Source: Thioalkalivibrio sp. AKL19
Lineage (GTDB): Bacteria > Pseudomonadota > Gammaproteobacteria > Ectothiorhodospirales > Ectothiorhodospiraceae
Length of the DNA stretch: 61,175 bases
Assembly: GCF_000420165.1 (NCBI RefSeq)
Contig: NZ_ATUK01000004.1
Span: 1-61,175 of the forward strand
Direction: 5' to 3'
Shown here piece by piece: positions 44,572 through 57,713 of this stretch (position 1 is the stretch's first letter; every line of letters begins with the position of its first letter). The notes below the pieces were generated by a model. It was not told the origin of the DNA. It searched no databases and saw only the letters and a list, made by a program, of their open reading frames with translations. Position numbers and translations under genes: made by a program.

Positions 44572-44967
44572 TCAGAGGGAGGAGATCTGGGCCCGGATCT
44601 GGTTGTCCAGATTCTGGATCCAGTTGTTGTAGTTCGGGTGGATGTTGCCGTCCGCGTAGTTCAGGTTCGCGCTGTCCTTGTAGCGGATGCTGTATTCCCC
44701 GGCAGCAAACGGGATCTCGACCACGGCGACGTGGTCACGCAGGTGGAGTCGCCCCTCCAGCAGTCCCGGTTCGGCCTCTTCCATGCGCCAGCCCAGCGAG
44801 GAACCCGCGGTGCGGATGGCGCGTTCCATCTGTTCGGCGCTGGGCCGCTCGCCATCGACATTGGTGACCGTGGTATCGCTGATGTCCTGCACGGGGACCG
44901 TGCCGCGGCAGCCGGCCAGCGCGAACAGAGCGGCGAAGAGGATGACCAGCAACGTCCTGGACTTCAT
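44572..44967 (-). CDS. Small lipoprotein of unknown function
   Basis: 131 residues. Signal MKSRTLLVILFAALFALAGC with the lipid Cys at residue 20. The mature region has a short folded part (SLGWRMEEAEPGLLEGRLHLRDHVAVVEIPF) and ends with an acidic/Asn-rich stretch. GGGAGAAA lies before ATG 44967. It is separated from the polyene operon by about 80 nt and could be its last gene or independent. Confidence 0.65.
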   Translation of the reverse strand: MKSRTLLVILFAALFALAGCRGTVPVQDISDTTVTNVDGERPSAEQMERAIRTAGSSLGWRMEEAEPGLLEGRLHLRDHVAVVEIPFAAGEYSIRYKDSANLNYADGNIHPNYNNWIQNLDNQIRAQISSL

Positions 44968-45049: not shown

Positions 45050-45778
45050 CTACCGCGGGATCACGCCCAGTGAACGCAGGAGCCCCAGCGGGCGCATCCC
45101 GCGGCGCAGCAGATGGCCGGCGACCATGGCGATGATGCGCAGGGTGTCCGCGGTGGGCCGGTAATGGCTGGGGCGGTGGTTCTCCGGGTAGATGCAGCGC
45201 ACTGGCACCACCCGCGCCGGGAAGCCCAGGCGTTCGGCGACGATCAGCGCCTCGCTCTCGAACACGAAACCGCGCGCGCGGTGGTGGCGCAGCTCCAGGC
45301 GCCGTAACAGGGGTGCCGGGTACAGCCGGAACCCCGACTGTGAATCCTGCAGCGGCTGTCCGGAGGCCCACGCGATCCAGAAGTCCGCCATGCGGTTGCC
45401 GAACAGCCGCAGCGGCGGGGTGTGCTCGCGGCCCTTGAGCCGGGCACCCAGGACGAGTCGCTCCGGCGTCTCGCGCCAGGCGGCGATCAGCGCGGGGATC
45501 TCCGAGGTGTCGTGCTGGCCATCGGCGTCCAGGGTCACCACGGCGTCGGCGCCGGTGGCCAGGGCATGCTGCATCCCGGCCCACAGGGCCGCCGCCTTGC
45601 CGCCGTTCGCGGGCTGGCGCAAGACCTCGGCCTGGTCCTCGACCAGGCGGGCGGTCGCGTCCTCCGAACCGTCGTCCACCACGATGACCCGCTCCACATG
45701 CGCCCGTGCGCCGGCGACCACCGCCTCGATGGTGGCGGCCTCGTTGTGCGCGGGGATCAGGGCAACAACGGCGTTCAT
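45050..45778 (-). CDS. Family 2 glycosyltransferase, polyene operon
   Basis: 242 residues. GT2 fold of the dolichol-phosphate-mannose-synthase type: ALIPAHNEAATIE, VIVVDDGSEDAT, TLDADGQHD (DxD) and GNRMADFWIAWASGQPLQDSQSGFRLY. There is no transmembrane tail. It is the twelfth and last gene of the operon starting at 55484. It probably adds a sugar or lipid-linked sugar to the polyene product; the exact acceptor is inference. Confidence 0.8.
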   Translation of the reverse strand: MNAVVALIPAHNEAATIEAVVAGARAHVERVIVVDDGSEDATARLVEDQAEVLRQPANGGKAAALWAGMQHALATGADAVVTLDADGQHDTSEIPALIAAWRETPERLVLGARLKGREHTPPLRLFGNRMADFWIAWASGQPLQDSQSGFRLYPAPLLRRLELRHHRARGFVFESEALIVAERLGFPARVVPVRCIYPENHRPSHYRPTADTLRIIAMVAGHLLRRGMRPLGLLRSLGVIPR

Positions 45779-45785
45779 GCGGGCG

Positions 45786-46508
45786 TCAGGCGAGCGCGCC
45801 GTTGACGCCGATCACCTGGCCGGATACATAGCTGGCGGCCTCGCTGGCAAGGAAGCCGACTACGCCCGCGACCTCCTCGGGCCGGCCCGCACGGCGCATC
45901 GGGACCATGTTGCGAATGGTCTCGGCATCGAAGCTGTCGTCGCTCATCGGGCTCTCGATGATCCCGGGGGCGACCGCATTGGCGGTGATGCCGCGCGAGG
46001 CGACTTCCTGGGCCAGCGAGCGGATCGCTCCATGCAGGCCGGCCTTCGCGGCGGCGTAATTGGTCTGGCCGCGATTGCCAATCTGTCCGGCCACCGAGGA
46101 GATGGCGATCACCCGGCCCCAGCGGGTCGTGATCATGGGCAGCAGCAGGGGCTGGGTCACGTTGTAGAACCCGTTGAGCCCGACATCGATCGGGCGGTCC
46201 CACTGTTCGCGGCGCATCCCGGCCAGCGGGGCGTCGTCGTGGACCCCCGCGTTGTGCACCAGGACCTGCACCGGCTGCTCGGCCACCAGGGGCTCCAGGC
46301 TCTCGCGGCAGGCTGCCTCGTCGGTGATGTCGAACACCCGCACCCGGGCCTGGCCGCCAGTCTCGCGGATGGCCGCGGCCGTGGCCTCGGCCGCGTCGGC
46401 ATTGCGGTGGGCGTGCAGGATGACCTCGTGGCCGGCCGCGGCCAGCGCGTGGGCGATCGCGGCGCCGATGGCGCCGGAGCCGCCGGTGATCAGGGCGCGT
46501 GTGGTCAA
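45786..46508 (-). CDS. 3-ketoacyl-ACP reductase (FabG/ApeQ-like)
   Basis: 240 residues. SDR: TGGSGAIG at residues 8-15, NAG motif (VHNAGVHDD), catalytic SSVAGQ...YAAAK. Its role would be reducing the beta-keto group during polyene chain extension. The start codon is TTG at 46508, with GGAGGAG upstream and a TTGA overlap with the dehydratase stop. Confidence 0.87.
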   Translation of the reverse strand: MTTRALITGGSGAIGAAIAHALAAAGHEVILHAHRNADAAEATAAAIRETGGQARVRVFDITDEAACRESLEPLVAEQPVQVLVHNAGVHDDAPLAGMRREQWDRPIDVGLNGFYNVTQPLLLPMITTRWGRVIAISSVAGQIGNRGQTNYAAAKAGLHGAIRSLAQEVASRGITANAVAPGIIESPMSDDSFDAETIRNMVPMRRAGRPEEVAGVVGFLASEAASYVSGQVIGVNGALA

Positions 46509-46966
46509 GGGGTCTCCTCCTCGTCGGCTGGTTGCAGGATCACCGTCGCCCGGGCGCTCAGCACTGGCTGGTCGCCGGCGCTTACGCGCAGGTCGTAGAT
46601 GGAACTGTTGCTGTCCGAGAGGATGCGTTCGGCGTGGATTTCCAGCGTGGCCTCAAGGGCGTCGAGGCGACGGGTCTGCAGTTGCAGATCCCGTACCGCT
46701 GCCAGGTAGCCGGCGCGCGCCGGTCCGGCGCCGGCCAGCAGGGCCCCGTGCACCGCCATGCCCTGGGCGCCGTACTCCAGCGCGGCCAGGGCGTGCAGGC
46801 CGGCCTCCCCGCGCAGCGGGTTGGCCGGATCCCGGTGGTTTCCAGCCCGGCAGTGGATCGAGGCGTCGGACCAGGCCTCCACCGAATCCAGCAGGCACAT
46901 TGCGCCGGCATGCGGCAGCAGCCGGCAGATGGCGTCGTGATCCAGGGTCTCGGTTCGGGATGACAT
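46505..46966 (-). CDS. 3-hydroxyacyl-ACP dehydratase, ApeP-like
   Basis: 153 residues. Hotdog fold with LPHAGAMCLLDSV, like ApeP of aryl-polyene clusters. In that system ApeP forms a heteromer with the ApeI-type dehydratase, here at 52906-53241. It supplies the trans double bonds of the polyene. The cluster holds both partners. Confidence 0.82.
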   Translation of the reverse strand: MSSRTETLDHDAICRLLPHAGAMCLLDSVEAWSDASIHCRAGNHRDPANPLRGEAGLHALAALEYGAQGMAVHGALLAGAGPARAGYLAAVRDLQLQTRRLDALEATLEIHAERILSDSNSSIYDLRVSAGDQPVLSARATVILQPADEEETP

Positions 46967-46997
46967 GCGCGGGATCTTCCTGATCCGGGCGGATGAT

Positions 46998-47777
46998 TCA
47001 GGGCTCGATCCGGATGTTCAGTGACCGGCCCAGCGGAGCCGCCAGCGTAACATTTCCGGGCGTGCCCCGGACCAGCCGTTCCAGCAGGGGCAGGGCGCGG
47101 GCCGCCGGATTGCTCCCGCGCAGGGCCTCGAGGTCGGCGCTGATGCAGCGGTCGGCCGTGGCCGGTCCCCCGAGATCGAGTTGCAGCCTCCAGGGGGCCT
47201 TGTCCACCGGGCCCAGACGCAGCGCGACTGCAAAGGGATGGTGGATGGGGCGCACGTGGATGAAGCTCTCCATGGACGGCACGTCGTAGCAGGCCAGCAG
47301 GACGTCGCCGCCCTCGGCCAGCTGCAGCGTAGCCGCCTCCAGCAGCCCCGCGGCCAGGCTGGCGTTGTAGCCCGACAGGGCGGTCGCCGGGGCCGGGTTG
47401 CGGGTCGCGATCGACCAGTTGCCGGCCGGAGCGTTATGTACCGAGTTGTGGAACTGGACCGGCGAGACCACCGGCTCCGGCCGGGTGAGCGCATCGCAGA
47501 TGCGGTCGATGATATCCATGTCGCCGGAGGATGACGCAAACACGCTGCGCAGCTGGCCGCGGTCGGCGTCCCGGGTCGCCTCTTCCGCGACCTTCAGCGC
47601 CAGGCGGATGGTGGCGGTGGTGCGCCGGCGTTCGTTGGCCGGGAGCAGGCCGGGCGGTGGGACCTGAACCTCGCGGCTTGTCAGCGGCGCGTCGCCGGCC
47701 AGGATCGGCCGGGCGCTGTCGAAGTCGTCCAGCCCCGGGCCCAGCAGGCCCACCGCATGCAGTCCGATGGCGTTCAT
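46998..47777 (-). CDS. Ketosynthase chain-length-factor-like partner
   Basis: 259 residues, shorter than a full ketosynthase. VHNAPAGNWSIAT is present, but I see no catalytic Cys in the expected context, as in ApeC-type partners. ATG 47777 overlaps the ketosynthase stop (ATGA). It would form a heterodimer with the gene just upstream and set polyene chain length. Longer open frames upstream are shadows of that gene. Confidence 0.78.
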   Translation of the reverse strand: MNAIGLHAVGLLGPGLDDFDSARPILAGDAPLTSREVQVPPPGLLPANERRRTTATIRLALKVAEEATRDADRGQLRSVFASSSGDMDIIDRICDALTRPEPVVSPVQFHNSVHNAPAGNWSIATRNPAPATALSGYNASLAAGLLEAATLQLAEGGDVLLACYDVPSMESFIHVRPIHHPFAVALRLGPVDKAPWRLQLDLGGPATADRCISADLEALRGSNPAARALPLLERLVRGTPGNVTLAAPLGRSLNIRIEP

Positions 47778-49009
47778 GGCGCGGCCTCCAGCAGCAGGCT
47801 GCAATTGTTGCCGCCAAACCCGAAGGCATTCACCAGCACCCGCTGCACCGCGCGGGGTTCCGCCTCGCTCCGGGCGTCGAGGCCCAGGTCCGGGTCCAGG
47901 GTATTGAGCCCGGCGGTGGGGGGTACGAAGCCGCCGTCCAGGCTGGCGAGGGCCTGGGCCACGCCAACCGCGCCGGCGGCCCCGAGGGTGTGCCCGGTCA
48001 GGCCCTTGGTACCGACCGCGCGCGGGTTCGGGCCCAGGCTGCGCACCAGGGCCCGTGCCTCGGATCCGTCGTTGGCCGGTGTCGCGGTGGCGTGCATCAG
48101 CACGTAGTCGATCGCGTCGCCGCGTCGCCCGGCCCGCACCAGGGCCTGCTGCAGCGCGGTTGCGGCCCCCAGGCCTTCGGGGTGCGGGGCGGACATGTGA
48201 TGGGCGTCGCTGGATTCGCCATGGCCGGTCAGCAGCGGCCCCGTGGCATCCGCCGAGGGCCGCTCCAGCAGGAAGAAGCCGGCGGCCTCGCCGATGGAGA
48301 TGCCGGCGCGGTCGCGATCCAGGGGGGTGCAGGGCCGCGCGGCGACCAGCTGCAGCGCGTTGAAGCCGTACAGCGTCATGCCGCACAGGCTGTCGACGCC
48401 GCCGACCACGGCCGCGTCGCAAAGCCCCGCCGCGATGTAGCGCCGGGCGTCGGCGAAGACCTTGGCGCTGGACGAGCAGGCGGTGGAGACCACCATCGCC
48501 GGGCCGGAGAGGCCGAAGCGGGTGGCCACGAAGTCGGCCAGCGAGAACATGTTCTGGGTGTGCCGATAGTCGTAGTCCGGGGGCAGGGCCCCGGTCTGCG
48601 GGTCCCGGCGGTGGTAGGCGGCCTCGGTGGCGGCGATGCCGGAGGTGCTGGTGCCCAGCAGCACGGCCACCCGGTCGGCCCCATGGCGCTCCACTGCGGC
48701 CGCCACGGCATCGGCGAAGCCGTCCTGGCGCAGGCCCAGCTCGGCGAGCTGGTTATTGCGGCACTGGAACGGGGCGAGGGCGCCCTCCAGGGTGATGGCC
48801 TCCACGCCGGGCACGCGGCCGATATGGGTGTCCAGGATGACACTCTCGAGGTCGCAGGGGCGCAGGCCGCTGGTGCCACTGCGCAAGGCCTCGGCATTGG
48901 CGGCAATCCCGGTGCCGGCGGCACTCGTCAGGGTATGGGCGGTAATGACCAGGGGGTCCATGGACGCGCTGCGGGTTGTGGCCGGAGGGTTCCCCGGGTG
49001 AGTTGGCAT
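47774..49009 (-). CDS. Beta-ketoacyl-ACP synthase (FabF/ApeO-like)
   Basis: 411 residues. Full ketosynthase: nucleophile Cys in STACSSSAKV, His in MHATATPANDGSE, second His region LTGHTLGAAGAV, and the C-terminal FGFGGNN. It performs decarboxylative chain extension with malonyl-ACP. ATG 49009 overlaps the exporter stop (TGATG); the conserved part begins 16 residues later (MDPLVITAHTL). Confidence 0.88.
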   Translation of the reverse strand: MPTHPGNPPATTRSASMDPLVITAHTLTSAAGTGIAANAEALRSGTSGLRPCDLESVILDTHIGRVPGVEAITLEGALAPFQCRNNQLAELGLRQDGFADAVAAAVERHGADRVAVLLGTSTSGIAATEAAYHRRDPQTGALPPDYDYRHTQNMFSLADFVATRFGLSGPAMVVSTACSSSAKVFADARRYIAAGLCDAAVVGGVDSLCGMTLYGFNALQLVAARPCTPLDRDRAGISIGEAAGFFLLERPSADATGPLLTGHGESSDAHHMSAPHPEGLGAATALQQALVRAGRRGDAIDYVLMHATATPANDGSEARALVRSLGPNPRAVGTKGLTGHTLGAAGAVGVAQALASLDGGFVPPTAGLNTLDPDLGLDARSEAEPRAVQRVLVNAFGFGGNNCSLLLEAAP

Positions 49010-51399
49010 CAGGCGGTATCTCGGCGTATGACCTCGGGGGCCAGCAGGGCCGCCGCGAGGAAGGAAAATACCACGCCCAGCACCACGGTGAGGCCAATCG
49101 CCTGCAAGACCGGAAGGCTGGAAAGGGATAACAACCCGAACACCACCAGGGTCGACAACGCGCACACGCTGACCGAGCGCAGGTTGCGCAGGCGTGCGGC
49201 GGCGTCCCGCAGCGGGCGGCTGAAGAACACTGCGTAATCCAGGCACAGCCCGGTGATCAGCAGCAGCGCGATCAGGTGGAAGAGCGATAGCTGGATACCC
49301 AGCAGGATCAGGGCGGCAAGGGTCAGCAGGAGGCCCGTGCCAACGGCCGTGAGGATACGCAGGCTGCGCCCGGGCGCCCGGGTGGCGGCGAGCAGCAGCA
49401 GCGCGACTGCGACCAGCCCCAGCGCCAGGCGCTGCAGGGCCTCGTCGCGAAAGCCGCTTACCAGGTCCTCGGACGCGCGGAAGAAGTCGATATGGCGCAC
49501 GCCGACGGCGTCGAACCCGGGCGTAGCGGCCAGGGGGGCGGCCGCGGCCCAGCGGGCCAGGGCCTCGGCGTCGTGAACGCCTTGCAGACGTACCCAGGCG
49601 ATCCAGCCCGCGCCCCCGTCACGCGGCTGGAGCAGGGGATTCAGGGCGTGGCGCAGCGGCCCGTCGGGCAGGGTCTCGGGTGTCAGCCGTTCCTGCTGGC
49701 GCGCTGTTTCGATGTCGCGGAGGAAGGGCTCGAAGGCCCCGTCGCGGAACCCCAGTCTCGCGCGCGCCGCCTCCAGGCGTTCGCGCAGTAGCCCGGGTTC
49801 CGGGAGGGCGGCCTGGCGCTCGCGCTGCACGGCCTGGCTCGGCAGCACGTCCGCCGCGTGCGCGAAGCCGCCCAGGGCCCCGGCCTCGCGCAGACTCTCG
49901 AGTCCCGGGGTCAGGGCCTCGCTGGCGCGCAGCACCTGCTCCGGGGAGGCGCCGGTGATCAGCAGGGCGTGGCGGACATCCGGCAGCCCCAGGGCGCTGC
50001 GCAGCTGCTGGTCGAGCGCCACCTGCTCCTCCGGGACGGGATGCAGGGCGGACAGGCGATCCTCCCACGGGAAGGGGGCGGTGTTTGCCACCACGACCAT
50101 TGCGGCCAGGGCGAGCAGGGCCACGCCCCAGCGCGTGATGGCAGGAGGCCGGGCGAGGCCAGCCGGCAGGGGCAGGCGCAGCGGCGGCAGGCCCTCGCGT
50201 TGCAACCGGGTCGGGATCAGCAATGGCAGGATCCAGCGGGTGGTCACGGCCGCCACGGCCACGCCGGTCAGCACGAACAGCCCGAGTTGGGCCATGCCGG
50301 AGAACCCGGTCATCGCCATCAGCGCAAAGACCAGCACGGTGCTACCGGCCCCCAGGGCGATGGCGGGCCACAGCTCGCGAGCAATCTGCGAGAGGTCGCC
50401 GCCGTCGGGCCTTTCGCCACCGGCGCGCTGCGCGTGGGCAAACAGGTGCAGCGGATAGTCCAGGGCGATGCCCAGCACGGTAATGCCGAAAGCCAGCGCG
50501 ATCCCGTGCAGGTGCCCGAAGACCAGAGTGACGACGGCCGCCGCGATCAGGATGCCGCTGGCCAGCGGCACGGCCGCCAGCCAGACCGGGTGGGGATGCC
50601 GGAATACCGCAAGCAGCAGGACGGCCAGCGCGAGGCTGGCGCCGGCGGTGATCCAGGTCACCTCGCCGCGGATGGTGGCGCGGGACTCCACCGCGATTAC
50701 CGCCGGGCCGGCGATCTGCAGGCGCAGACCGGTGTCGGCGTGCTCGGAAAAGCTCGCGCGGGTATGTTCGATCAGGGCGGCCTGGGCATCCAGGTCCATC
50801 CCCTCGGCCGCGCTGCGCAGGATCAGCAGCGCCCGGTCCCGGTCGGGGGAGACCCAGACGCCCTCGGGGCCGGTCGTGGCGTGGCCGCTGCCGGCGGCGA
50901 GCCGTTCCAGCACAGCCCGGGTCTCGGCGGTGGGGTCGCGAGGGATCAGTTCCCGCGGCAGTTCGGGTACGGCGCTGGCGAGGTCGTCGCGGCGGTCCTT
51001 CAGGTGTTCGCGCAGGCGGCCTTCGCTGAAGTGTTCCGCGTCGACCCGGGGGCTCAGCAGGTAGCGATGCTCGATCAGGAAATCCAGCGCCGGGTCGTCG
51101 GGGTCGAGGCGGCCGTTCTGGATGCCGGCGACCTCCGGGGCCTCCTTCAGGGCGGCGACCAGGGCATCGCTAGCCGCCGCGCGCTCGCGCGAATCGCCCC
51201 CCTCGATCGCCAGCAGCAGCATGCGGCCGGCCGGCCCGGCCCCGGGGTCCAGCGCGACCCCGTCGGCGCTGATCGGGTCCGGGGCAAAGCCCTGCAGGTC
51301 GGTGACCAGCTCACCGCGCAGGGCCAACGTCAGCGTGGCGAGCAGCAGGGCTGCCAGCCAGAGGGCCAGGGCCGCGCGGGAGGAATACGGGCGCCGCAA
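49009..51399 (-). CDS. MMPL/RND-superfamily exporter, polyene operon
   Basis: 796 residues with about 12 hydrophobic segments in two RND-like halves and large extracytoplasmic loops after TM1 and TM7. It looks like the exporter (COG4258 type) found in aryl-polyene and xanthomonadin clusters, thought to pass the pigment to the outer membrane. A TTG at 51399 is the only start with the family N-terminus; its Shine-Dalgarno is poor, so coupling to the gene 3 nt upstream probably helps. Confidence 0.85.
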   Translation of the reverse strand: MRRPYSSRAALALWLAALLLATLTLALRGELVTDLQGFAPDPISADGVALDPGAGPAGRMLLLAIEGGDSRERAAASDALVAALKEAPEVAGIQNGRLDPDDPALDFLIEHRYLLSPRVDAEHFSEGRLREHLKDRRDDLASAVPELPRELIPRDPTAETRAVLERLAAGSGHATTGPEGVWVSPDRDRALLILRSAAEGMDLDAQAALIEHTRASFSEHADTGLRLQIAGPAVIAVESRATIRGEVTWITAGASLALAVLLLAVFRHPHPVWLAAVPLASGILIAAAVVTLVFGHLHGIALAFGITVLGIALDYPLHLFAHAQRAGGERPDGGDLSQIARELWPAIALGAGSTVLVFALMAMTGFSGMAQLGLFVLTGVAVAAVTTRWILPLLIPTRLQREGLPPLRLPLPAGLARPPAITRWGVALLALAAMVVVANTAPFPWEDRLSALHPVPEEQVALDQQLRSALGLPDVRHALLITGASPEQVLRASEALTPGLESLREAGALGGFAHAADVLPSQAVQRERQAALPEPGLLRERLEAARARLGFRDGAFEPFLRDIETARQQERLTPETLPDGPLRHALNPLLQPRDGGAGWIAWVRLQGVHDAEALARWAAAAPLAATPGFDAVGVRHIDFFRASEDLVSGFRDEALQRLALGLVAVALLLLAATRAPGRSLRILTAVGTGLLLTLAALILLGIQLSLFHLIALLLITGLCLDYAVFFSRPLRDAAARLRNLRSVSVCALSTLVVFGLLSLSSLPVLQAIGLTVVLGVVFSFLAAALLAPEVIRRDTA

Positions 51400-51402
51400 G
51401 GG

Positions 51403-52023
51403 CTAGTCCGTGTACTGCGGGGGATCGAAGCGCATATGGCTCTGGTGCCCGCCGGCCTCGATGGTGACCAGTTCGCGCAGTTCGTCCCCGGCGCCCTTCA
51501 GGGTCAGCTCGGGGACCATGCGCCGCAGCGCGCGGTCGCGCGGGACGAGTTCCAGGGTCCAGGCGTCCATGTCGCCCGTGATGTCGATCTCGAAGTCGGT
51601 CTCCAGCGTCTCCCGGTCGCCGGTCAGCAGGGCGCGGAACAGCCCGGTAAGGGTGGCCAGGGCCGGCTGTTCGTTCAGGTCGATCTCGCGGCTGGAGCCA
51701 CGACGCTCCAGGGTCAGGGTGTCGCCCTCGATGTGTACGGTCTCGCCCCGCGGGCCGTCGACCTTGCGGACCAGGGTATCCGGCGGCTCGAAGGCGAGGG
51801 AGCCGGACTGGATCTCGGGGAATTCCAGCATCGGGTCGTCGCGGCGTTCCTCGAACGCGAGGGTCGTGGCGCGTTCGGTTGCCAGGGCGTCAAGGAGGGC
51901 CCCCAGGGTGTCGTCGCCCGGGGCCGCCAGCGGGGCGAGGAGGAGCCCCGCCATCAGCATCAGCGCCTTTGCGGCCCGACGGGCGGTCGGGCCCGGTCGC
52001 GGGCTTGCTCTATGGGGATGCAT
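51403..52023 (-). CDS. LolA-like periplasmic lipid/lipoprotein carrier
   Basis: 206 residues. Arg-rich N-terminus, then a hydrophobic core (ALMLMAGLLLAPLAAP), so it is exported. The body is a LolA-type strand-rich fold (TLAFEERRDDPMLEFPEIQSGSLAFEPPDTLVRKVDG). It is the usual partner of the MMPL exporter in polyene clusters. ATG 52023 overlaps the acyltransferase gene by 14 nt; the earlier in-frame start belongs to that gene's shadow. Confidence 0.75.
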   Translation of the reverse strand: MHPHRASPRPGPTARRAAKALMLMAGLLLAPLAAPGDDTLGALLDALATERATTLAFEERRDDPMLEFPEIQSGSLAFEPPDTLVRKVDGPRGETVHIEGDTLTLERRGSSREIDLNEQPALATLTGLFRALLTGDRETLETDFEIDITGDMDAWTLELVPRDRALRRMVPELTLKGAGDELRELVTIEAGGHQSHMRFDPPQYTD

Positions 52024-52909
52024 CGTCCCAGAAGTCATAGAAGTTGAACCAGTTGTAGGGGGCCTCGCGCACCCGGGCCTCGAGGCGGTCGGCATAGCGT
52101 TGTACCCACTGCGCGAGGGCCTCGTCGCGCTGCCCGCGCGGGGCCTCGATGGTTTCGGCGAAGCGTTCGAAGACAATATCGTAGCGGTTGCCGCCGCGAT
52201 AGAGGCCGAAGCACAGGATGACCGGGACCTTCAGTACCGTGGCCAGCAGCAAGGGCCCTTGCGGGAACAGCGCGGTGTCACCGAGGAAGTTGCATGCGAC
52301 CATCTTGTCGCTCTCGGCGACGCGGTCGCCCAGGGTTGCGATCAGCTCGCCGCGATCCAGGCACTCGCGGGCCTGGATCAGGGTCTCGGTGCGCCCCAGC
52401 GGGATCACGGAGGCGGCGACCTCGGGATTCAGCGCTTCCAGGACCTGCGTGATGCTCCGGTTGTGGTCGTTGTACATCAGGACCCGCACGGGGAAGTCGT
52501 ACTTGCCCACTGCCAGTGCGCGCAGGGCCTCGAAGCTGCCCAGGTGCGCGCCCAGCAGGATGGCACCTTGGCCGCTGTCGACGTGTTCCAGGAAGATCTC
52601 GCGGTTGTGTACGCGGATGTCCAGGCAGGCATCCTTGCCGGCGAGCAGGAAGACTCGGTCGAGGATCACCGCGGCAAAGCTGTGCAGATGTCGCGCCACG
52701 TCCGTCAGACGTGGCTCGCGCGCGAGGACCCGGCGCAGGTAATTGCGGCTGTGGCGCCGCGATTGCGGGGCGAACAGCAGGAAGTAGGCGGTAATCGGGT
52801 AGAGCAGGGTCCGGCTCGCGCGCCGGCCCAGGTTCAGGGCGACCCACAGGATGATGCGCAGGGCCAGTGGCGAACCCCGTTCCTCCTGCTGGAACCAGCT
52901 GCGGCTCAT
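52010..52909 (-). CDS. LpxL/HtrB-type acyltransferase, polyene operon
   Basis: 299 residues. An N-terminal membrane-anchoring helix (IILWVALNLGRR...LYPITAYFLLF) and the HX4E motif in AHLGSFE, as in lipid A late acyltransferases. Within this operon it probably esterifies the polyene to a glycerol- or lipid-type acceptor. Its start overlaps the upstream dehydratase stop (ATGA). Confidence 0.82.
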   Translation of the reverse strand: MSRSWFQQEERGSPLALRIILWVALNLGRRASRTLLYPITAYFLLFAPQSRRHSRNYLRRVLAREPRLTDVARHLHSFAAVILDRVFLLAGKDACLDIRVHNREIFLEHVDSGQGAILLGAHLGSFEALRALAVGKYDFPVRVLMYNDHNRSITQVLEALNPEVAASVIPLGRTETLIQARECLDRGELIATLGDRVAESDKMVACNFLGDTALFPQGPLLLATVLKVPVILCFGLYRGGNRYDIVFERFAETIEAPRGQRDEALAQWVQRYADRLEARVREAPYNWFNFYDFWDDASP

Positions 52910-53241
52910 GCGTCCGGGCTGTCGTGGATCGTGACCAGTTGCCCGGTGCAGTAGGTGACCGGTGCCTCGCTGTCGTCGGCGACTACGCGGAAGGCCTGAC
53001 GGCCACCGCGCCCGGGCGGATCGATCTCGATGCGGAATGCCGTTTCGGGCCCCAGGGGCGCGAGGAACTTGACCTGGGGAAGGGCCGCGACCGGCCCGAG
53101 ACCGTGGGCACGGGCCACCGCCGCGACCTGGTCGAGGATGACCACCCCGGGCACCACCGGGTGTCCGGGGAAGTGCCCGGGCAGGGACGGATGCTCGGCC
53201 CCGATGCGACGGACGGCGGACTGGACGCGGGGTGGCTGCAT
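52906..53241 (-). CDS. Hotdog 3-hydroxyacyl-ACP dehydratase, ApeI/FabZ-like
   Basis: 111 residues, shorter than FabZ. HPSLPGHFPGHPVVPGVV contains the catalytic His and the Gly-Pro loop. It is the second dehydratase subunit, expected to pair with the ApeP-like protein. 13 nt separate it from the adenylation gene. Confidence 0.84.
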   Translation of the reverse strand: MQPPRVQSAVRRIGAEHPSLPGHFPGHPVVPGVVILDQVAAVARAHGLGPVAALPQVKFLAPLGPETAFRIEIDPPGRGGRQAFRVVADDSEAPVTYCTGQLVTIHDSPDA

Positions 53242-53254
53242 CGCGGCCGGCGGC

Positions 53255-54604
53255 TCAGGCGCACTGGCCGTGGTGGGCGAGCAGGTCCAGCAGTACCTGG
53301 CGCGGCAGCTTCCCCGTGGCCGAGCGCGGCAGGTGCCCGACCCGGACCAGCGGGCGTGGCAGGAACAACGGGTCCATGCATTCGGACAGGGCGGCCTGGA
53401 TCTCGGTCTCGCTGAGATCCGGCGCGACCACCAGCGCGGCCAGACGGGTTACACCACGCGCGTCGGCGTCGGGTTCCGGCGGGATGAAGACCCCGTCGAG
53501 GACCCCGGGGATCGCGTTCAGCCGGCGGTTGAGATCGGCCAGCGACGCGCGTTTTCCGGCGATGTTCAACTGGTCCGCCAGGCGCCCCTCCATGCGGAAA
53601 TGGCCCGCGCCGCGGACCTCGATATGGTCCGGAAGCGGCACTGGTTCGGGGTGCTGTGGGCCCCGAACCCGGGCACGACCGTCGTCCCCGGCGTGGATGC
53701 CTACCCCGGGGTAAGTGGTCCAGTCGGCCGCGCGCGTGGTCCGGCGTGTCGCGATGGCACCCGCCTCGGTGCAGCCGTAGATCTCGTCGAGGCGGCAGCC
53801 GAACACACGCTCGGCCTGGCCGGCGGCTTCCGGGTCCAGCGGCGCGGTGGCACACAGGATGCGGGCCGGTGACGGCCATTCGAGACCGGCGCGCAGGCAG
53901 GCCTTCAGGTGGAAGGGTGTGGTCACCAGCACGGCCGGGGCGCAGGCGGTCAGTGCCGCGCGTACGTCCTCGGGGTAGAACGGGCGTCCGGCGAGCAGGG
54001 TGGTGGGGCCCAGCAGGGCATACAGGACAGTCGACTCCAGGCCGTACATATGCTGCGGCGGCACTGTGCCGACCAGGGTGGGGGCGGGGTCGCCCTCCGG
54101 AGCAAGCGCCTCCAGCGCCTGGGCGGTCACGGCATGCAGGGCCTCCCAGCTGCGCGCGTGTGCGGTGGGGGCCCCGGTGCTGCCGGAGGAGAACGCCAGC
54201 ACGGCAGTCTGCCCGCCGGGGATCTCCGGGATCGGCCCCGTGACCTCGCCCGCCTTGCCGTGCGCGGTGACCCGTAATATCGGGATCGCGATTTCGGTGT
54301 CCGGTCCGTCCACCAGGGCAACCGCATCCGGATGCTGGCTGGCGATCTCGGCCAGGGTCGTGCGCCCGCGGTTTGGCGGGAGCAGGTTGATCTGGCCGCG
54401 CAGCAGGATCGCGGCAAAGGCCACCGCGAAGTGGTAGCGGTCCTGGCACAGGTTGAAGGCCGCCCGGGCTGGCGGCAGGCGTTCGGCCAGCGCCTGCACG
54501 TCGGCGAGAAAGGCGGCGCGCGAGACCAGGTGGTCGCCGATGCGTGCCAGTGGGGCGGGCGTATCGGCGATCAGCGGACGGGTGTCGGGCGTGGCGTCCG
54601 TCAC
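53255..54604 (-). CDS. Acyl-adenylating ligase, polyene starter activation
   Basis: 449 residues. ANL-family AMP ligase: SSGSTGAPTAHARSWEAL (P-loop), EIYGCTEAGAIA (A5-like), and a C-terminal GKLPR. It activates a carboxylic acid, by analogy a 4-hydroxybenzoate-type aryl starter, and loads it on ACP. The GTG at 54604 overlaps the upstream stop (GTGA). The aryl-acid-forming enzyme is not in the window. Confidence 0.8.
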   Translation of the reverse strand: MTDATPDTRPLIADTPAPLARIGDHLVSRAAFLADVQALAERLPPARAAFNLCQDRYHFAVAFAAILLRGQINLLPPNRGRTTLAEIASQHPDAVALVDGPDTEIAIPILRVTAHGKAGEVTGPIPEIPGGQTAVLAFSSGSTGAPTAHARSWEALHAVTAQALEALAPEGDPAPTLVGTVPPQHMYGLESTVLYALLGPTTLLAGRPFYPEDVRAALTACAPAVLVTTPFHLKACLRAGLEWPSPARILCATAPLDPEAAGQAERVFGCRLDEIYGCTEAGAIATRRTTRAADWTTYPGVGIHAGDDGRARVRGPQHPEPVPLPDHIEVRGAGHFRMEGRLADQLNIAGKRASLADLNRRLNAIPGVLDGVFIPPEPDADARGVTRLAALVVAPDLSETEIQAALSECMDPLFLPRPLVRVGHLPRSATGKLPRQVLLDLLAHHGQCA

Positions 54605-55215
54605 GGGTGCCTCAGCATCCGGTGATGGTCGACCCGGGCAAGCGCCATGAGGTAGGCGAAGAAGCCGTCGCGGGCCTCGTCGCGCAGCAGCCAGCGGCGC
54701 AGCGGATACTCCAGCAGGAACAGGCCGGCCAGCAGCAGGTAGTTGATCCCGTTGGCGAACAGTGCCCAGGTGGTCGCGGAGGCGAACAGCGCGAGCCATG
54801 CGGATGCGAGGGCCAGGGCACCGCACAGGAGCGCCCAGGTGATGGTCAGGCTGCGGGTGTAGCGATGCACCGCGGGCGTGTCGGAGGCCCCCATGGCCAG
54901 GGCATAGCGCGTGATCAGCGGGGTGGAATCGGGGCGTAGCGAACGCGCGAACAGGAGCGACAGCAGCCCCATGATCAGCACCGGCAAGGTGTACAGCACC
55001 CAGGTCGCCACCCCGCCAAGCAACGCCGTGGCGATGCCCAGGGTCAGGGCGGCGGCGAGCACACCGCGACCGGTGACCGCCAGCGAGGTCCAGGCGGCTA
55101 CCAGGATCAGGGTCGCGAGGATGACCAGGGGCAACAGCGGCACCCCGAAGGTCACGCCGAGAACGACCGCGACCGGGTAGCTCAGGGCCACACTGGCGGC
55201 GAGCGGGGTGTTCAC
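54601..55215 (-). CDS. COG4648-type inner-membrane protein, polyene operon
   Basis: 204 residues with about six hydrophobic segments (SVALSYPVAVVLGVTFGVPLL, LILVAAWTSLAVT, LLGGVATWVLYTLPVL, ITWALLCGALALAS and others). It is the membrane gene that usually sits beside the AMP ligase in aryl-polyene clusters; role unknown. GTG 55215 overlaps the ACP stop (GTGA). Confidence 0.75.
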   Translation of the reverse strand: MNTPLAASVALSYPVAVVLGVTFGVPLLPLVILATLILVAAWTSLAVTGRGVLAAALTLGIATALLGGVATWVLYTLPVLIMGLLSLLFARSLRPDSTPLITRYALAMGASDTPAVHRYTRSLTITWALLCGALALASAWLALFASATTWALFANGINYLLLAGLFLLEYPLRRWLLRDEARDGFFAYLMALARVDHHRMLRHP

Positions 55216-55484
55216 GATGCCGCTCGGTTGGCCTCGATATGGGTGCTCAGGGCGCGCAGGGACGCGAAGATCTGGCGGTTGTTCTCGTCGTCCGAGCGGA
55301 TCTGTACGCCATAGGCGCGCGAGATCGCGAGCGCCAGTTCCAGGGCGTCGATCGAGTCGAGGCCCAGTCCCTCCCGGAACAGCGCAGCCTCGGGCTCGAT
55401 GTCCTCCGGCGCGACGTCTTCCAGGTTGAGGCTGTCGACGATCAGCCGTGCGACTTCCTGTTCGAACGCTGTTTGCGATGCCAC
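55212..55484 (-). CDS. Acyl carrier protein, polyene operon
   Basis: 90 residues. DSID in GLGLDSIDALELALAI contains the phosphopantetheine serine. It is the first gene of the operon, behind GTG 55484 with GGGGGA upstream. Aryl-polyene clusters often carry two ACPs; only one is seen here. The divergent halogenase-like gene begins 175 bp away. Confidence 0.88.
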   Translation of the reverse strand: MASQTAFEQEVARLIVDSLNLEDVAPEDIEPEAALFREGLGLDSIDALELALAISRAYGVQIRSDDENNRQIFASLRALSTHIEANRAAS

Positions 55485-55659
55485 GTGGTTTCCCCCAAAA
55501 GAGTATGAGTGCAGTTTTGTGACCGCGCGCGAACTTCCGGTTTGCGCCGCGGTCCTTCTGCCTGGCGCCGATGATACCCACACCAGGGGGCCCGTGGTAC
55601 CCTCGCGACCAGCTCGGGGCGTCGTTCTGGGGCTGCGGTCGGGCAAGTGGAGACGTGAC

Positions 55660-57018
55660 TTGAGACAACCGGGACAGGAAGCCGCAACCGACGGTCGCTG
55701 CCAGGTGCTGGTGATTGGAGGCGGGCCCGCCGGTTCCACCGTGGCGGCCCGGCTGGCGCAACAGGGCCGCGATGTGGTGTTGCTGGAAAAGGCCCGGCAT
55801 CCGCGTTTCCACATCGGCGAGTCCCTGCTGCCGATGAACATGCCGCTGTTCGAGGAGCTGGGCGTGGCCGAGGCAGTACAGGCGATCGGCATCCCCAAAC
55901 ACGGAGCTGAATTCACCATCCCCGAGGCGCCCGACGCGCCGCGTACCTATTACTTCGAGCGTGCCCTGAACGACGACACCCCCGCCTCCGCCCTCGAGGT
56001 TCGCCGCTCCGAGTTCGATCACCTGCTACTGGAGAACAGCGCACGGCTGGGCGTGCGGGTCCTGGAGGAGGTCACGGTCTCCGATGTCGCCCTGGCCGAC
56101 CCCGCAAAGGGCGAAACCCAACAGGTTACCGCGCGCGACGCATCCGGCAACACGCTGGAGTTCGAGGCCGATTTCGTGGTCGATGCCTCTGGTCGCGACA
56201 CCTTCCTGGCGCGCCGCCTGGACCTGAAGGCGCGCAACCCGGAACACAACAGCGCCGCGATCTTCGGGCACTTCAACAACGTGCCCCGTCGCCCCGGGCG
56301 CGATGCCGGCAACATCAGCATTTACTGGTTCCAGCATGGCTGGATCTGGATGATTCCGCTGCGCGACGGAGCGATGAGCGTGGGGGCCGTCTGCTTCCCG
56401 GAATACCTGAAGACCCGGAGGACCAAGCCGGAGATCTTCCTGTGGGAGACGCTGAAGCTTTGCCCGCCGGCCTTCGAGCGCATGCAGGAGGCGGAACTGG
56501 CGGGGCCGGTCAATGCCACCGGCAACTTTTCCTATCGCTCCAGCCGGTCCCACGGCCCGGGCTATCTGCTGGTAGGCGATGCCTTCACCTTCGTCGACCC
56601 GGTGTTCTCCAGCGGCGTTTATATCGCGATGTCGGGCGCCTTCCGTGCCGCCGACGCGGTGGACCGGAGCCTGGCGCATCCGGCGCGCTCCGCCAGGTAC
56701 CTGCGCGCCTTCGAGCGTGACGTGCGCCGTGGCGTACGCCGCTTCTCCTGGTTGATCTACCGCTTCAACAGCCCGGTTATGCGCAAGCTGTTCATGGGGC
56801 CGCGCAATACCCTCGGCATGGAGCAGGCGGTGATCTCGCTGCTGGCCGGGGATGTCTACCGCAATACCCGGGTGCAGTGGTCCCTGCGCGCCTTCAAGAC
56901 GGTGTACTACGTGCAGATGGCGCTGAACCTGCCGCGGGCCCTGGGCTTCTGGGCGCGCCGCCGGCGTAACGCCCGGCTGCACTTCACCGGCGGCACCACG
57001 CCCGAAGACGAGGCCTGA
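55660..57018 (+). CDS. Flavin-dependent halogenase-like FAD protein
   Basis: 452 residues. Rossmann FAD site VLVIGGGPAGSTVAARL, then KARHPRFHIGESLLP, then WIWMIP near residue 225, which matches the WxWxIP signature of flavin-dependent halogenases. GDAFTFVDPVFSSGV is the second FAD motif. Its position opposite the polyene operon fits chlorination of an aryl polyene. Related non-halogenating oxidoreductases (for example geranylgeranyl-reductase types) share the fold, but they usually lack WxWxIP. The start is TTG 55660, with GGAG 7 nt upstream; an upstream open frame is unlikely. Confidence 0.72.
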   Translation: MRQPGQEAATDGRCQVLVIGGGPAGSTVAARLAQQGRDVVLLEKARHPRFHIGESLLPMNMPLFEELGVAEAVQAIGIPKHGAEFTIPEAPDAPRTYYFERALNDDTPASALEVRRSEFDHLLLENSARLGVRVLEEVTVSDVALADPAKGETQQVTARDASGNTLEFEADFVVDASGRDTFLARRLDLKARNPEHNSAAIFGHFNNVPRRPGRDAGNISIYWFQHGWIWMIPLRDGAMSVGAVCFPEYLKTRRTKPEIFLWETLKLCPPAFERMQEAELAGPVNATGNFSYRSSRSHGPGYLLVGDAFTFVDPVFSSGVYIAMSGAFRAADAVDRSLAHPARSARYLRAFERDVRRGVRRFSWLIYRFNSPVMRKLFMGPRNTLGMEQAVISLLAGDVYRNTRVQWSLRAFKTVYYVQMALNLPRALGFWARRRRNARLHFTGGTTPEDEA

Positions 57019-57029
57019 GCGGGATTCCC

Positions 57030-57713
57030 GTGGGCGCGGCGCGCATCAAATTGAGTGGCATCGGGCCGGACGGCCTGGCGACCTTTGCCCTGTCCAATCT
57101 GATCATCCTCGCCACCGGCGGCCTTTCCTGGCTGGTGCTGTGGCTCTACACCCTGTATTGGTCGCGGCAGCTGCGCTGCCCCGGGAGTGGAGACTGCATC
57201 CTGGTCCTGGGACAGCAGCTGGAAGCGGGCGCGCCCGGCCCGGGCTATCGCCTGCGCCTGTTGCGCGCGGTGCGTCTGGCGCGGCGGAATCCCGCTGCCC
57301 GGATCCTGGTGCTGGGCGGGCAGACCTCCGCCGGGGCGCCTAGCGAAGCCGCCGCGGGTGCGGCATTCCTGCAACGCCACGGGGTCGCGGCTGCGCGCAT
57401 CCGCACCGAAGACGCCTCGCGGCATACGCTGGAGAATCTGCGCAACGCGCGCGATCTGCTGACGGAGACGCCGGAGACGCCGGAGGCGAGTGATGCACCG
57501 ATGGTGCTGGTGACCAGCCGCTTTCACCTGGCCCGGGCGGTGGCCATGGCGCGGGGCATGGGGTTGCAAGTCTGCCCCTGCCCGGCGGAGCCGGGCTCCA
57601 CCGTGTCGGCGGCGCGACTGGCGCGCGAATGCTGGATGCTGCACTGGTATCACACCGGCCGCACGCTGGCGCGCCTGATCCGCCACCGCGGCATGCTCGA
57701 ACGCATCACCTGA
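57030..57713 (+). CDS. YdcF-type DUF218 protein
   Basis: 227 residues. One or two N-terminal TM helices, then the DUF218 core: CILVLGQQLEAG, RILVLGGQTSAGAPSEA, EDASRHTLENLRNA, LVTSRFHLARAVAMARG. Its function is not known; family members are linked to envelope metabolism. GTG 57030 lies 11 nt after the halogenase-like gene, so the two form one unit. Confidence 0.82.
   Translation: MGAARIKLSGIGPDGLATFALSNLIILATGGLSWLVLWLYTLYWSRQLRCPGSGDCILVLGQQLEAGAPGPGYRLRLLRAVRLARRNPAARILVLGGQTSAGAPSEAAAGAAFLQRHGVAAARIRTEDASRHTLENLRNARDLLTETPETPEASDAPMVLVTSRFHLARAVAMARGMGLQVCPCPAEPGSTVSAARLARECWMLHWYHTGRTLARLIRHRGMLERIT

What the first reader, a model, noticed from the sequence alone, without database searches (positions are those of the whole stretch)
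45050..57713. Aryl-polyene pigment operon with a divergent halogenase-like gene: candidate natronochrome/chloronatronochrome pathway
Twelve minus-strand genes with overlaps of up to 14 nt or short gaps (longest 31 nt) encode ACP, membrane protein, AMP ligase, two hotdog dehydratases, acyltransferase, LolA-like carrier, MMPL exporter, ketosynthase, chain-length-factor partner, ketoreductase and GT2. This is the aryl-polyene/xanthomonadin set. The divergent FAD gene has the WxWxIP motif of halogenases. Thialkalivibrio versutus is known to make natronochrome and a chlorinated form; this locus would explain both. Genus and product are inference.
Basis: partly seen in the sequence, partly recalled or inferred. 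Interest (0 to 1): 0.9.

Follow-up and report, generated by a model that had tools for sequence, protein, structure and literature searches.

The report
Yellow polyene pigment operon with halogenase
A soda-lake sulfur bacterium carries the genes for a yellow aryl-polyene pigment, probably natronochrome, next to a halogenase gene that only some species of the genus keep and that the known chlorinated-pigment producer may lack.

Summary
The twelve-gene minus-strand operon (45050-55484) and the divergent halogenase-like gene (55660-57018) are real and correctly described. The operon is a xanthomonadin-type type II aryl-polyene set in a Thioalkalivibrio. Strain K90mix, stated in its genome paper to make natronochrome by genes that "remain to be identified", has the same operon, so natronochrome is the likely product, untested. 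An unlinked pair, an FkbO/Hyg5-family chorismatase and a UbiE-like methyltransferase, tracks the operon: the methyltransferase is in 14 of 15 operon-positive and 0 of 15 operon-negative genomes of the genus. It probably supplies and methylates the aryl starter. The divergent gene is a convincing flavin-dependent halogenase (PltA/CndH group) with conserved motifs. It is missing from 7 of the 15 operon-positive genomes, K90mix included, in otherwise collinear loci. Strain ALJ15, source of chloronatronochrome, has been reassigned in print from T. versutus to T. nitratis, and published T. nitratis markers fit only halogenase-negative genomes among those held. So the locus probably explains natronochrome, but perhaps not the chlorine of ALJ15; halogenase-positive species are predicted to make a halogenated form. 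A search of the ALJ15 genome for this gene would decide.

The parts
55212..55484 (-). acyl carrier protein (DSI motif), first gene of operon
   Evidence: PP-binding 4.5e-9; 84-96% identical in the 14 other operon-positive genomes of the genus
54601..55215 (-). membrane protein of the pigment operon, no Pfam or NCBIfam hit
   Evidence: at the same place in congeners and found in many distant pigment loci
53255..54604 (-). AMP-forming ligase, predicted to load the aryl acid on the ACP
   Evidence: AMP-binding 2.9e-19; best NCBIfam 4-coumarate-CoA ligase 3e-23, below cut-off
52906..53241 (-). hotdog dehydratase, ApeI-like
   Evidence: FabA-like 2e-5, just over the cut-off
52010..52909 (-). lipid A-type acyltransferase
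   Evidence: Lip_A_acyltrans 2.5e-13
51403..52023 (-). LolA-like periplasmic carrier
   Evidence: LolA_3 3.3e-26
49009..51399 (-). MMPL exporter
   Evidence: MMPL 6.4e-16
47774..48961 (-). ketosynthase with ACSSS active site (possible start at 49009)
   Evidence: NCBIfam NF006618 beta-ketoacyl-ACP synthase, 484 bits, above cut-off
46998..47777 (-). truncated chain-length-factor-like partner
   Evidence: Ketoacyl-synt_2 6.2e-28 on 46998-47729; no NCBIfam hit; found beside KS in 80 of 80 named KS loci
46505..46966 (-). second hotdog dehydratase, ApeP-like (by position and homologues)
   Evidence: no Pfam hit; homologues at the same place in distant loci
45786..46508 (-). ketoreductase (SDR)
   Evidence: adh_short_C2 5e-51
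45050..45778 (-). family 2 glycosyltransferase
   Evidence: Glycos_transf_2 1.1e-21
55660..57018 (+). divergent flavin-dependent halogenase (PltA/CndH group), accessory gene present in 8 of 15 operon-positive genomes of the genus
   Evidence: Trp_halogenase 3.3e-27; PltA 1.3e-51; motifs; fold
57030..57713 (+). DUF218 protein, 11 nt after the halogenase; present in all 7 halogenase-negative operon loci
   Evidence: DUF218 4.3e-27
55485..55659 (.). 175-nt divergent intergenic region; about 46 nt (about 55560-55605) is 80-85% alike in 5 of the 7 halogenase-negative loci

Best explanation
The operon is a xanthomonadin-type aryl-polyene pathway that makes natronochrome. Proposed steps: an unlinked FkbO/Hyg5-family (probably XanB2-like) chorismatase makes hydroxybenzoate from chorismate; the AMP ligase loads it on the ACP; KS/CLF, KR and the two hotdog dehydratases extend it with malonate units to a conjugated polyene; a UbiE-like methyltransferase adds a ring methyl; acyltransferase, GT2, LolA-like carrier and MMPL exporter attach the polyene to lipid and move it to the outer membrane. 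The divergent flavin halogenase halogenates the phenolic ring, probably while it is carrier-bound, in the species that keep the gene. It is a removable tailoring step: about half of the operon-carrying species lack it and should make only the unhalogenated pigment. Shown by computation: gene content, synteny, motifs, fold, co-occurrence. Inferred: product identity, order of steps, halide, substrate.
For: Families of the operon genes. KS in 15 of 30 genomes of the genus, own included, one match each at E <= 1e-40. K90mix, stated to make natronochrome (PMC3368412), is genome G029 (2,744,800 + 240,256 = 2,985,056 bp) and has the operon. Methyltransferase (75% identity or more) in 14 of 15 KS+ and 0 of 15 KS- genomes; two chorismatases in 12 of 15 KS+ and 0 of 15 KS-; the two genes adjacent in G000 and in the six other genomes looked at. 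Homologues at E <= 1e-10 lie in the held flanks of pigment loci elsewhere: chorismatase 25 of 80, methyltransferase 22 of 80 named KS loci. G026, nested in the halogenase-positive clade by rpoB, lacks KS, halogenase, methyltransferase and second chorismatase, and its valS locus has lost operon and DUF218. Halogenase: PltA 1.3e-51, CndH, ChlB4, Mpy16, CmlS; Foldseek PltA TMq 0.81; in 42 homologues (39 distinct) GESLLP 42, Lys80 42, WxWxIP 41 and FxDPxFSxG 41, the missing one being a truncated frame. Orthologue in 25 of 80 named KS loci, and beside at least 3 operon-type genes in 8 of 9 strong-hit genomes outside the genus, the ninth being a 4.8-kb contig.
Against: No experiment. The K90mix paper states that it makes natronochrome but cites the ALJ15 pigment paper for it, and I saw no K90mix pigment data; confidence was lowered from 0.75 to 0.72 when I rechecked this. 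The natronochrome structure is recalled, not read. The operon-positive genomes form one clade apart from G026, so the co-occurrence counts are not independent. G007 and G012 have operon and methyltransferase but one chorismatase, lying on another contig; G018 (66% complete) has neither unlinked gene and no GT2 match. The chorismatase hits TIGR04444 below its cut-off, so its type is open. 55 of 80 named KS loci show no such halogenase in the flank held, and T. paradoxus (G011) has a distant PF04820 homologue without the ketosynthase. No thioesterase was seen in the operon, and none was searched for elsewhere. Halide and substrate cannot be read from sequence. The pigment of the window's own strain is unknown.
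Confidence: 0.72

Rival explanations
1. One reading: this halogenase makes chloronatronochrome in the published producer (ALJ15), so one locus explains both pigments.
For: Halogenase motifs and fold; divergent position beside the pigment ACP; present in eight genomes of the genus. The pair G002/G009, which I take for T. versutus/T. jannaschii, is halogenase-positive. Strains of one species can differ in gene content.
Against: ALJ15 is T. nitratis (PMC5345834). T. nitratis strains fall in sulfur-gene groups with aprBA (PMC6382920), strain ALJ2 lacks desA/desC (PMC8092127), and the species sits in an ANIm-94% trio. Of the operon-positive genomes only G001, G025 and G029 fit all three, and these lack the halogenase and any PF04820 hit at E <= 1e-5.
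Confidence: 0.25
2. The divergent gene is a flavin monooxygenase that hydroxylates the aryl ring, not a halogenase.
For: FAD_binding_3 1.6e-21; hydroxybenzoate hydroxylases appear among weaker matches; the second-best NCBIfam model is the monooxygenase QhpG (1.3e-46), and both it and the best, halogenase CmlS (1.8e-59), are far below their cut-offs; 3nix, a flavoprotein of unknown function, is among the best structural matches.
Against: WxWxIP, suggested to prevent monooxygenase action (PMC5945002), in 41 of 42 homologues; Lys80 in 42 of 42; the best solved relatives are mostly halogenases.
Confidence: 0.12
3. The operon makes another aryl polyene (for example a lipid or dialkylresorcinol ester as in arcuflavin) and natronochrome is only its extracted methyl ester.
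For: LolA, MMPL, acyltransferase and GT2 point to a membrane-anchored product; xanthomonadin I was isolated as an isobutyl ester (PMC3691225).
Against: Refines rather than contradicts the assignment; dialkylresorcinol genes were not searched for.
Confidence: 0.35

Closest known systems
Xanthomonadin (xan/pig) clusters of Xanthomonas and the Lysobacter enzymogenes pigment cluster
   Same: One KS with a CLF-like partner resembling half a CLF, AT, ACP, KR, two DH, LolA-type carrier, exporters, GT2-type gene; XanB2-type starter enzyme; a halogenase in the Xanthomonas clusters and none in Lysobacter (PMC3691225, passages)
   Different: Chorismatase and methyltransferase are unlinked in Thioalkalivibrio; the halogenase is divergent from the ACP and present in only part of the genus
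Arcuflavin (arc) clusters of Azoarcus sp. BH72
   Same: Halogenase arcA, XanB2-type arcB, methyltransferase arcM, AMP ligase, LolA, exporter (PMC3949708, passages); a different Azoarcus, sp. L1K30 (L082), carries an orthologue of this halogenase at 54%
   Different: BH72 has two pigment loci and a dialkylresorcinol ester; no such ester is known here
Aryl/pyrrole halogenases PltA, Mpy16, Bmp2, ChlB4 and the variant CndH
   Same: Fold, FAD motif, WxWxIP region, lysine region
   Different: About 26-32% identity; substrate and halide untested
E. coli/Vibrio aryl-polyene (ape) clusters
   Same: Shared core logic (recalled)
   Different: Those have two ACPs and a second KS (recalled); this operon has one of each, like the xanthomonadin type

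Membership tests
Xanthomonadin-type type II aryl-polyene cluster | KS immediately beside a truncated CLF-like protein | tested here: met
   pairing described in PMC3691225; pair present in 80 of 80 named KS loci
Xanthomonadin-type type II aryl-polyene cluster | ACP, AMP ligase, KR, two hotdog DH, acyltransferase, LolA, MMPL exporter in one operon | tested here: met
   one DH by position only, the other by a weak hit
Xanthomonadin-type type II aryl-polyene cluster | XanB2-type chorismatase for the starter | tested here: inconclusive
   none in the operon; unlinked second FkbO/Hyg5-family copy in G000 (PF21168 5e-30; TIGR04444 2.4e-68 but below cut-off); chorismatase type not resolved
Xanthomonadin-type type II aryl-polyene cluster | makes a yellow aryl polyene | not testable with these tools
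   needs mutants and mass spectrometry
Flavin-dependent halogenase | GxGxxG FAD motif | tested here: met
   GGGPAGS; 42 of 42 keep GGGPxGx
Flavin-dependent halogenase | WxWxIP | tested here: met
   WIWMIP; 41 of 42 homologues, one truncated
Flavin-dependent halogenase | conserved catalytic lysine | tested here: met
   Lys80 in 42 of 42; aligns within one position of the corresponding Lys of PltA and CndH
Flavin-dependent halogenase | halogenase activity | not testable with these tools
   needs enzyme assay
Natronochrome pathway | present in a reported natronochrome producer | tested here: met
   K90mix, so reported in PMC3368412 (statement with a citation, no data seen), = G029, carries the operon
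Chloronatronochrome pathway | halogenase present in the producer ALJ15 | tested here: inconclusive
   ALJ15 genome not available; its species T. nitratis inferred to be halogenase-negative

The most novel reading that the evidence does not exclude
Thioalkalivibrio holds two or three pigment chemotypes. The halogenase-positive clade, which probably includes true T. versutus and T. jannaschii, makes a halogenated aryl polyene that has not been described. The chlorine of chloronatronochrome in ALJ15 (T. nitratis, halogenase-negative clade) would then come from an enzyme outside PF04820, or from chance chlorination in brine or work-up.
Probability: 0.35. Interest if true: 0.65.

Novelty: new member of a known kind. 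Interest (0 to 1): 0.55.

Why it matters
Natronochrome is a yellow, highly unsaturated membrane pigment of soda-lake sulfur oxidisers, thought to protect against oxygen radicals and UV (PMC3368412, PMC5345834, passages). The K90mix genome paper left its genes unidentified. Searches of the open-licence library for natronochrome (3 papers), chloronatronochrome (the same 3) and Thioalkalivibrio with polyene (3 papers seen as a listing only) showed no paper that names them; most subscription papers are not in that library. This work gives a specific gene set (operon plus two unlinked genes), a clean natural presence/absence contrast for the halogenase, and a concrete reason to recheck which enzyme chlorinates the pigment in ALJ15.

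Tried and rejected
Ammonia-lyase starter route: PF00221 matched 1 of 30 genomes, a 50-position fragment in G012, so rejected. Two-haplotype idea (pigment loci exchanged as divergent alleles between close species), suggested by the valS tree: rejected, because an unlinked region and rpoB show the same split; valS is the outlier. Halogenase relic in halogenase-negative loci: the 170-285 bp between the ACP and DUF218 matches hold no coding remnant; protein search up to E = 10 gave only two stray hits elsewhere in the stretches, and in 5 of 7 a stretch of about 46 nt of upstream DNA is shared. A perfect sigma-70 consensus pattern had no match in the window. The ORF list by GC phase chose wrong-strand frames in parts of the operon and was used only to pick window ORFs.

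Flanks of many named loci are cut, so '25 of 80' is a floor. L073-L077 are the same strains as G004, G024, G022, G020 and G005; the 42-sequence motif count holds 39 distinct sequences. No tree of the halogenase family was made. The operon protein tree is rooted at its midpoint.
Full report
Observation. The operon and the divergent gene are present as described. Twelve minus-strand frames run from ACP (55212-55484) to GT2 (45050-45778) with 4- or 14-nt overlaps and short gaps. The one doubt is the ketosynthase start: ATG at 48961 leaves a 47-nt gap, an in-frame ATG at 49009 overlaps the exporter stop by 1 nt. Pfam supports GT2, KR, CLF, KS, MMPL, LolA, acyltransferase, AMP ligase and ACP, and weakly the ApeI-like dehydratase. 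The second dehydratase and the membrane protein have no family hit and rest on position and homologues. The divergent gene hits Trp_halogenase and has WIWMIP. It starts at a TTG preceded by GGAGA; DUF218 follows after 11 nt.

Organism. The window lies in a 2.88-Mb genome of 18 contigs. A scan of named genomes with the ketosynthase returned Thioalkalivibrio ALE31, ALJ7, ALJ16, T. thiocyanoxidans ARh2 and ALJ3 as nearest (78-93%), then a drop to 59%. The genus is settled; species and strain are not. Handles were matched to strains by exact contig length: G004 = ALE31 (509302), G024 = ALJ7 (914487), G022 = ALJ16 (60798), G020 = ARh2 (24871), G005 = ALJ3 (883197). G029 = K90mix, since 2,744,800 + 240,256 = 2,985,056, the size given in PMC3368412. 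G011 = T. paradoxus (3,756,729; abstract, contig length).

Distribution in the genus. Thirty genomes were examined, the window's own included. The ketosynthase is in 15, one match each at E <= 1e-40. A halogenase orthologue (82-95% identical) is in 8 of those 15 and in none of the other 15; T. paradoxus has only a distant homologue (36%). In the 7 operon-positive, halogenase-negative genomes (G001, G005, G007, G012, G020, G025, G029) the order is the same and ACP and DUF218 lie 170-285 bp apart. None of the 7 has a PF04820 match at E <= 1e-5; the 9 of 30 that do are the 8 positives and T. paradoxus. An rpoB tree of 18 genomes gives a halogenase-positive clade (7 genomes plus the operon-less G026), a halogenase-negative clade of 5 with K90mix and ARh2, and a basal pair G007/G012; G018 has no rpoB match and is not in it. 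In a midpoint-rooted tree of five operon proteins G018 (halogenase-positive, long branch) falls outside both clades with moderate support (88/92). Outside the genus the halogenase also lies divergent from the ACP in L062, L063, L064 and L101. Ancestral presence with clean losses is the more economical reading, not a proven one.

Unlinked partners. Two FkbO/Hyg5-family chorismatases are found in 12 of 15 operon-positive and 0 of 15 operon-negative genomes; 25 of 30 have at least one. In G000 the second copy is followed by a UbiE-family methyltransferase, and the pair is adjacent in the six other genomes looked at. That methyltransferase (at least 75% identical) is in 14 of 15 operon-positive and 0 of 15 operon-negative genomes, the exception being G018 at 66% completeness; the true UbiE is a separate copy about 30% identical. 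Homologues of the two genes at E <= 1e-10 sit within the held flanks of pigment loci elsewhere: chorismatase in 25 of 80, methyltransferase in 22 of 80, some of them partial at contig ends. G026 is the best natural test: by rpoB it falls inside the halogenase-positive clade, yet it lacks ketosynthase, methyltransferase and second chorismatase, and at its valS locus operon, halogenase and DUF218 are gone while flanking genes remain. Against this, the operon-positive genomes belong to one clade, so the counts are not independent, and G007/G012 have a single chorismatase that lies away from their methyltransferase. From memory, and from no call, natronochrome has a hydroxy-methyl-phenyl end group and a methyl ester; a chorismatase plus a C-methyltransferase would fit that ring.

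The halogenase. Nearest solved sequences are PltA (1.3e-51), CndH (2.5e-51), ChlB4, Mpy16 (5buk), FasV and CmlS. The AlphaFold model (pLDDT 83.8, pTM 0.85) matches FasV, PltA, Bmp2, ChlB4, the Cytophaga flavoprotein 3nix and CndH best (TMq 0.74-0.81). Across 42 homologues (39 distinct) GESLLP and Lys80 are in 42, WxWxIP and FxDPxFSxG in 41, the last being a truncated frame. PMC5945002 (passages) used GxGxxG, the lysine and WxWxIP to identify such enzymes. Against: NCBIfam's best models, the halogenase CmlS and the monooxygenase QhpG, are both hit far below cut-off. PltA acts on a carrier-bound ring (reference title; others of the group recalled), so a carrier-bound hydroxyaryl substrate is the natural guess. 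The orthologue is in 25 of 80 named pigment loci, 18 of the 48 with at least 20 kb held, including Azoarcus, Nitrospira and Thiobacillus. A halogenase in such clusters is known from Xanthomonas and Azoarcus (PMC3691225, PMC3949708, passages), so the association itself is not new.

Does it explain chloronatronochrome? The strain from which both pigments were reported, ALJ15, is T. nitratis according to PMC5345834 (passage). T. nitratis strains fall in sulfur-gene groups with aprBA (PMC6382920, passages); the species forms an ANIm-94% cluster with two others (PMC5345834); its strain ALJ2 lacks desA and desC (PMC8092127, passages). Among operon-positive genomes G000, G002, G004, G007, G009, G021 and G024 have fatty acid desaturases, and G022, G007 and G012 lack aprA. 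G018 is a fragmentary 66% genome. ARh2 and ALJ3 are other named groups. G001, G025 and G029 have aprA, have no desaturase and form the only trio (91.9-93.8% over the 20-kb stretches). All three lack the halogenase. The pair G002/G009 (93.3%, no aprA, desaturases) fits T. versutus/T. jannaschii and is halogenase-positive. So the published chlorinated pigment probably comes from a species without this gene, unless ALJ15 differs from its species, T. nitratis is not among the genomes held, or the published assignment is wrong for the strain used. This is inference from markers.

Verdict. The operon is an ordinary member of the xanthomonadin family, not assigned in any paper I found, and the best candidate for natronochrome synthesis. 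The halogenase is an accessory, lineage-specific tailoring gene. The claim that it accounts for chloronatronochrome in ALJ15 is doubtful and easily tested.

Noticed in passing
window 57941-60718 (valS) and L184-L198: valS is unusually uniform across the clade (90.8-97.5% nt among 15 genomes) although the pigment region beside it is only about 69-77% alike between clades, and its tree conflicts with rpoB; it may have been exchanged by recombination.
   Followed up: partly
window 44572-44967: Small predicted lipoprotein without family hit, next to GT2; homologues in 21 of 80 named pigment loci (5 of them Thioalkalivibrio), yet G026 keeps it after losing the operon.
   Followed up: partly
window 57030-57713: DUF218 protein recurs in 13 of 80 named pigment loci (5 of them Thioalkalivibrio) and is gone from the G026 locus together with the operon.
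   Followed up: no
L177, L178, L213, L214 (G007, G012): These two operon-positive genomes keep the methyltransferase but not a chorismatase beside it; their single chorismatase is on another contig, so their starter may come from that copy.
   Followed up: partly
window 55560-55605: About 46 nt in the divergent intergenic region is 80-85% conserved in 5 of 7 halogenase-negative loci; possibly the operon promoter or a regulator site.
   Followed up: no
window 885-42361: Ten further ORFs scanned look ordinary (RadA-like ATPase, CNNM/CorC transporter, SRP54, TonB receptor, DnaK, DnaJ, GGDEF-EAL protein, class II tRNA synthetase-like protein, S13 carboxypeptidase), one of the ten without a hit at E <= 1e-10 (some names recalled from the Pfam labels).
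   Followed up: no
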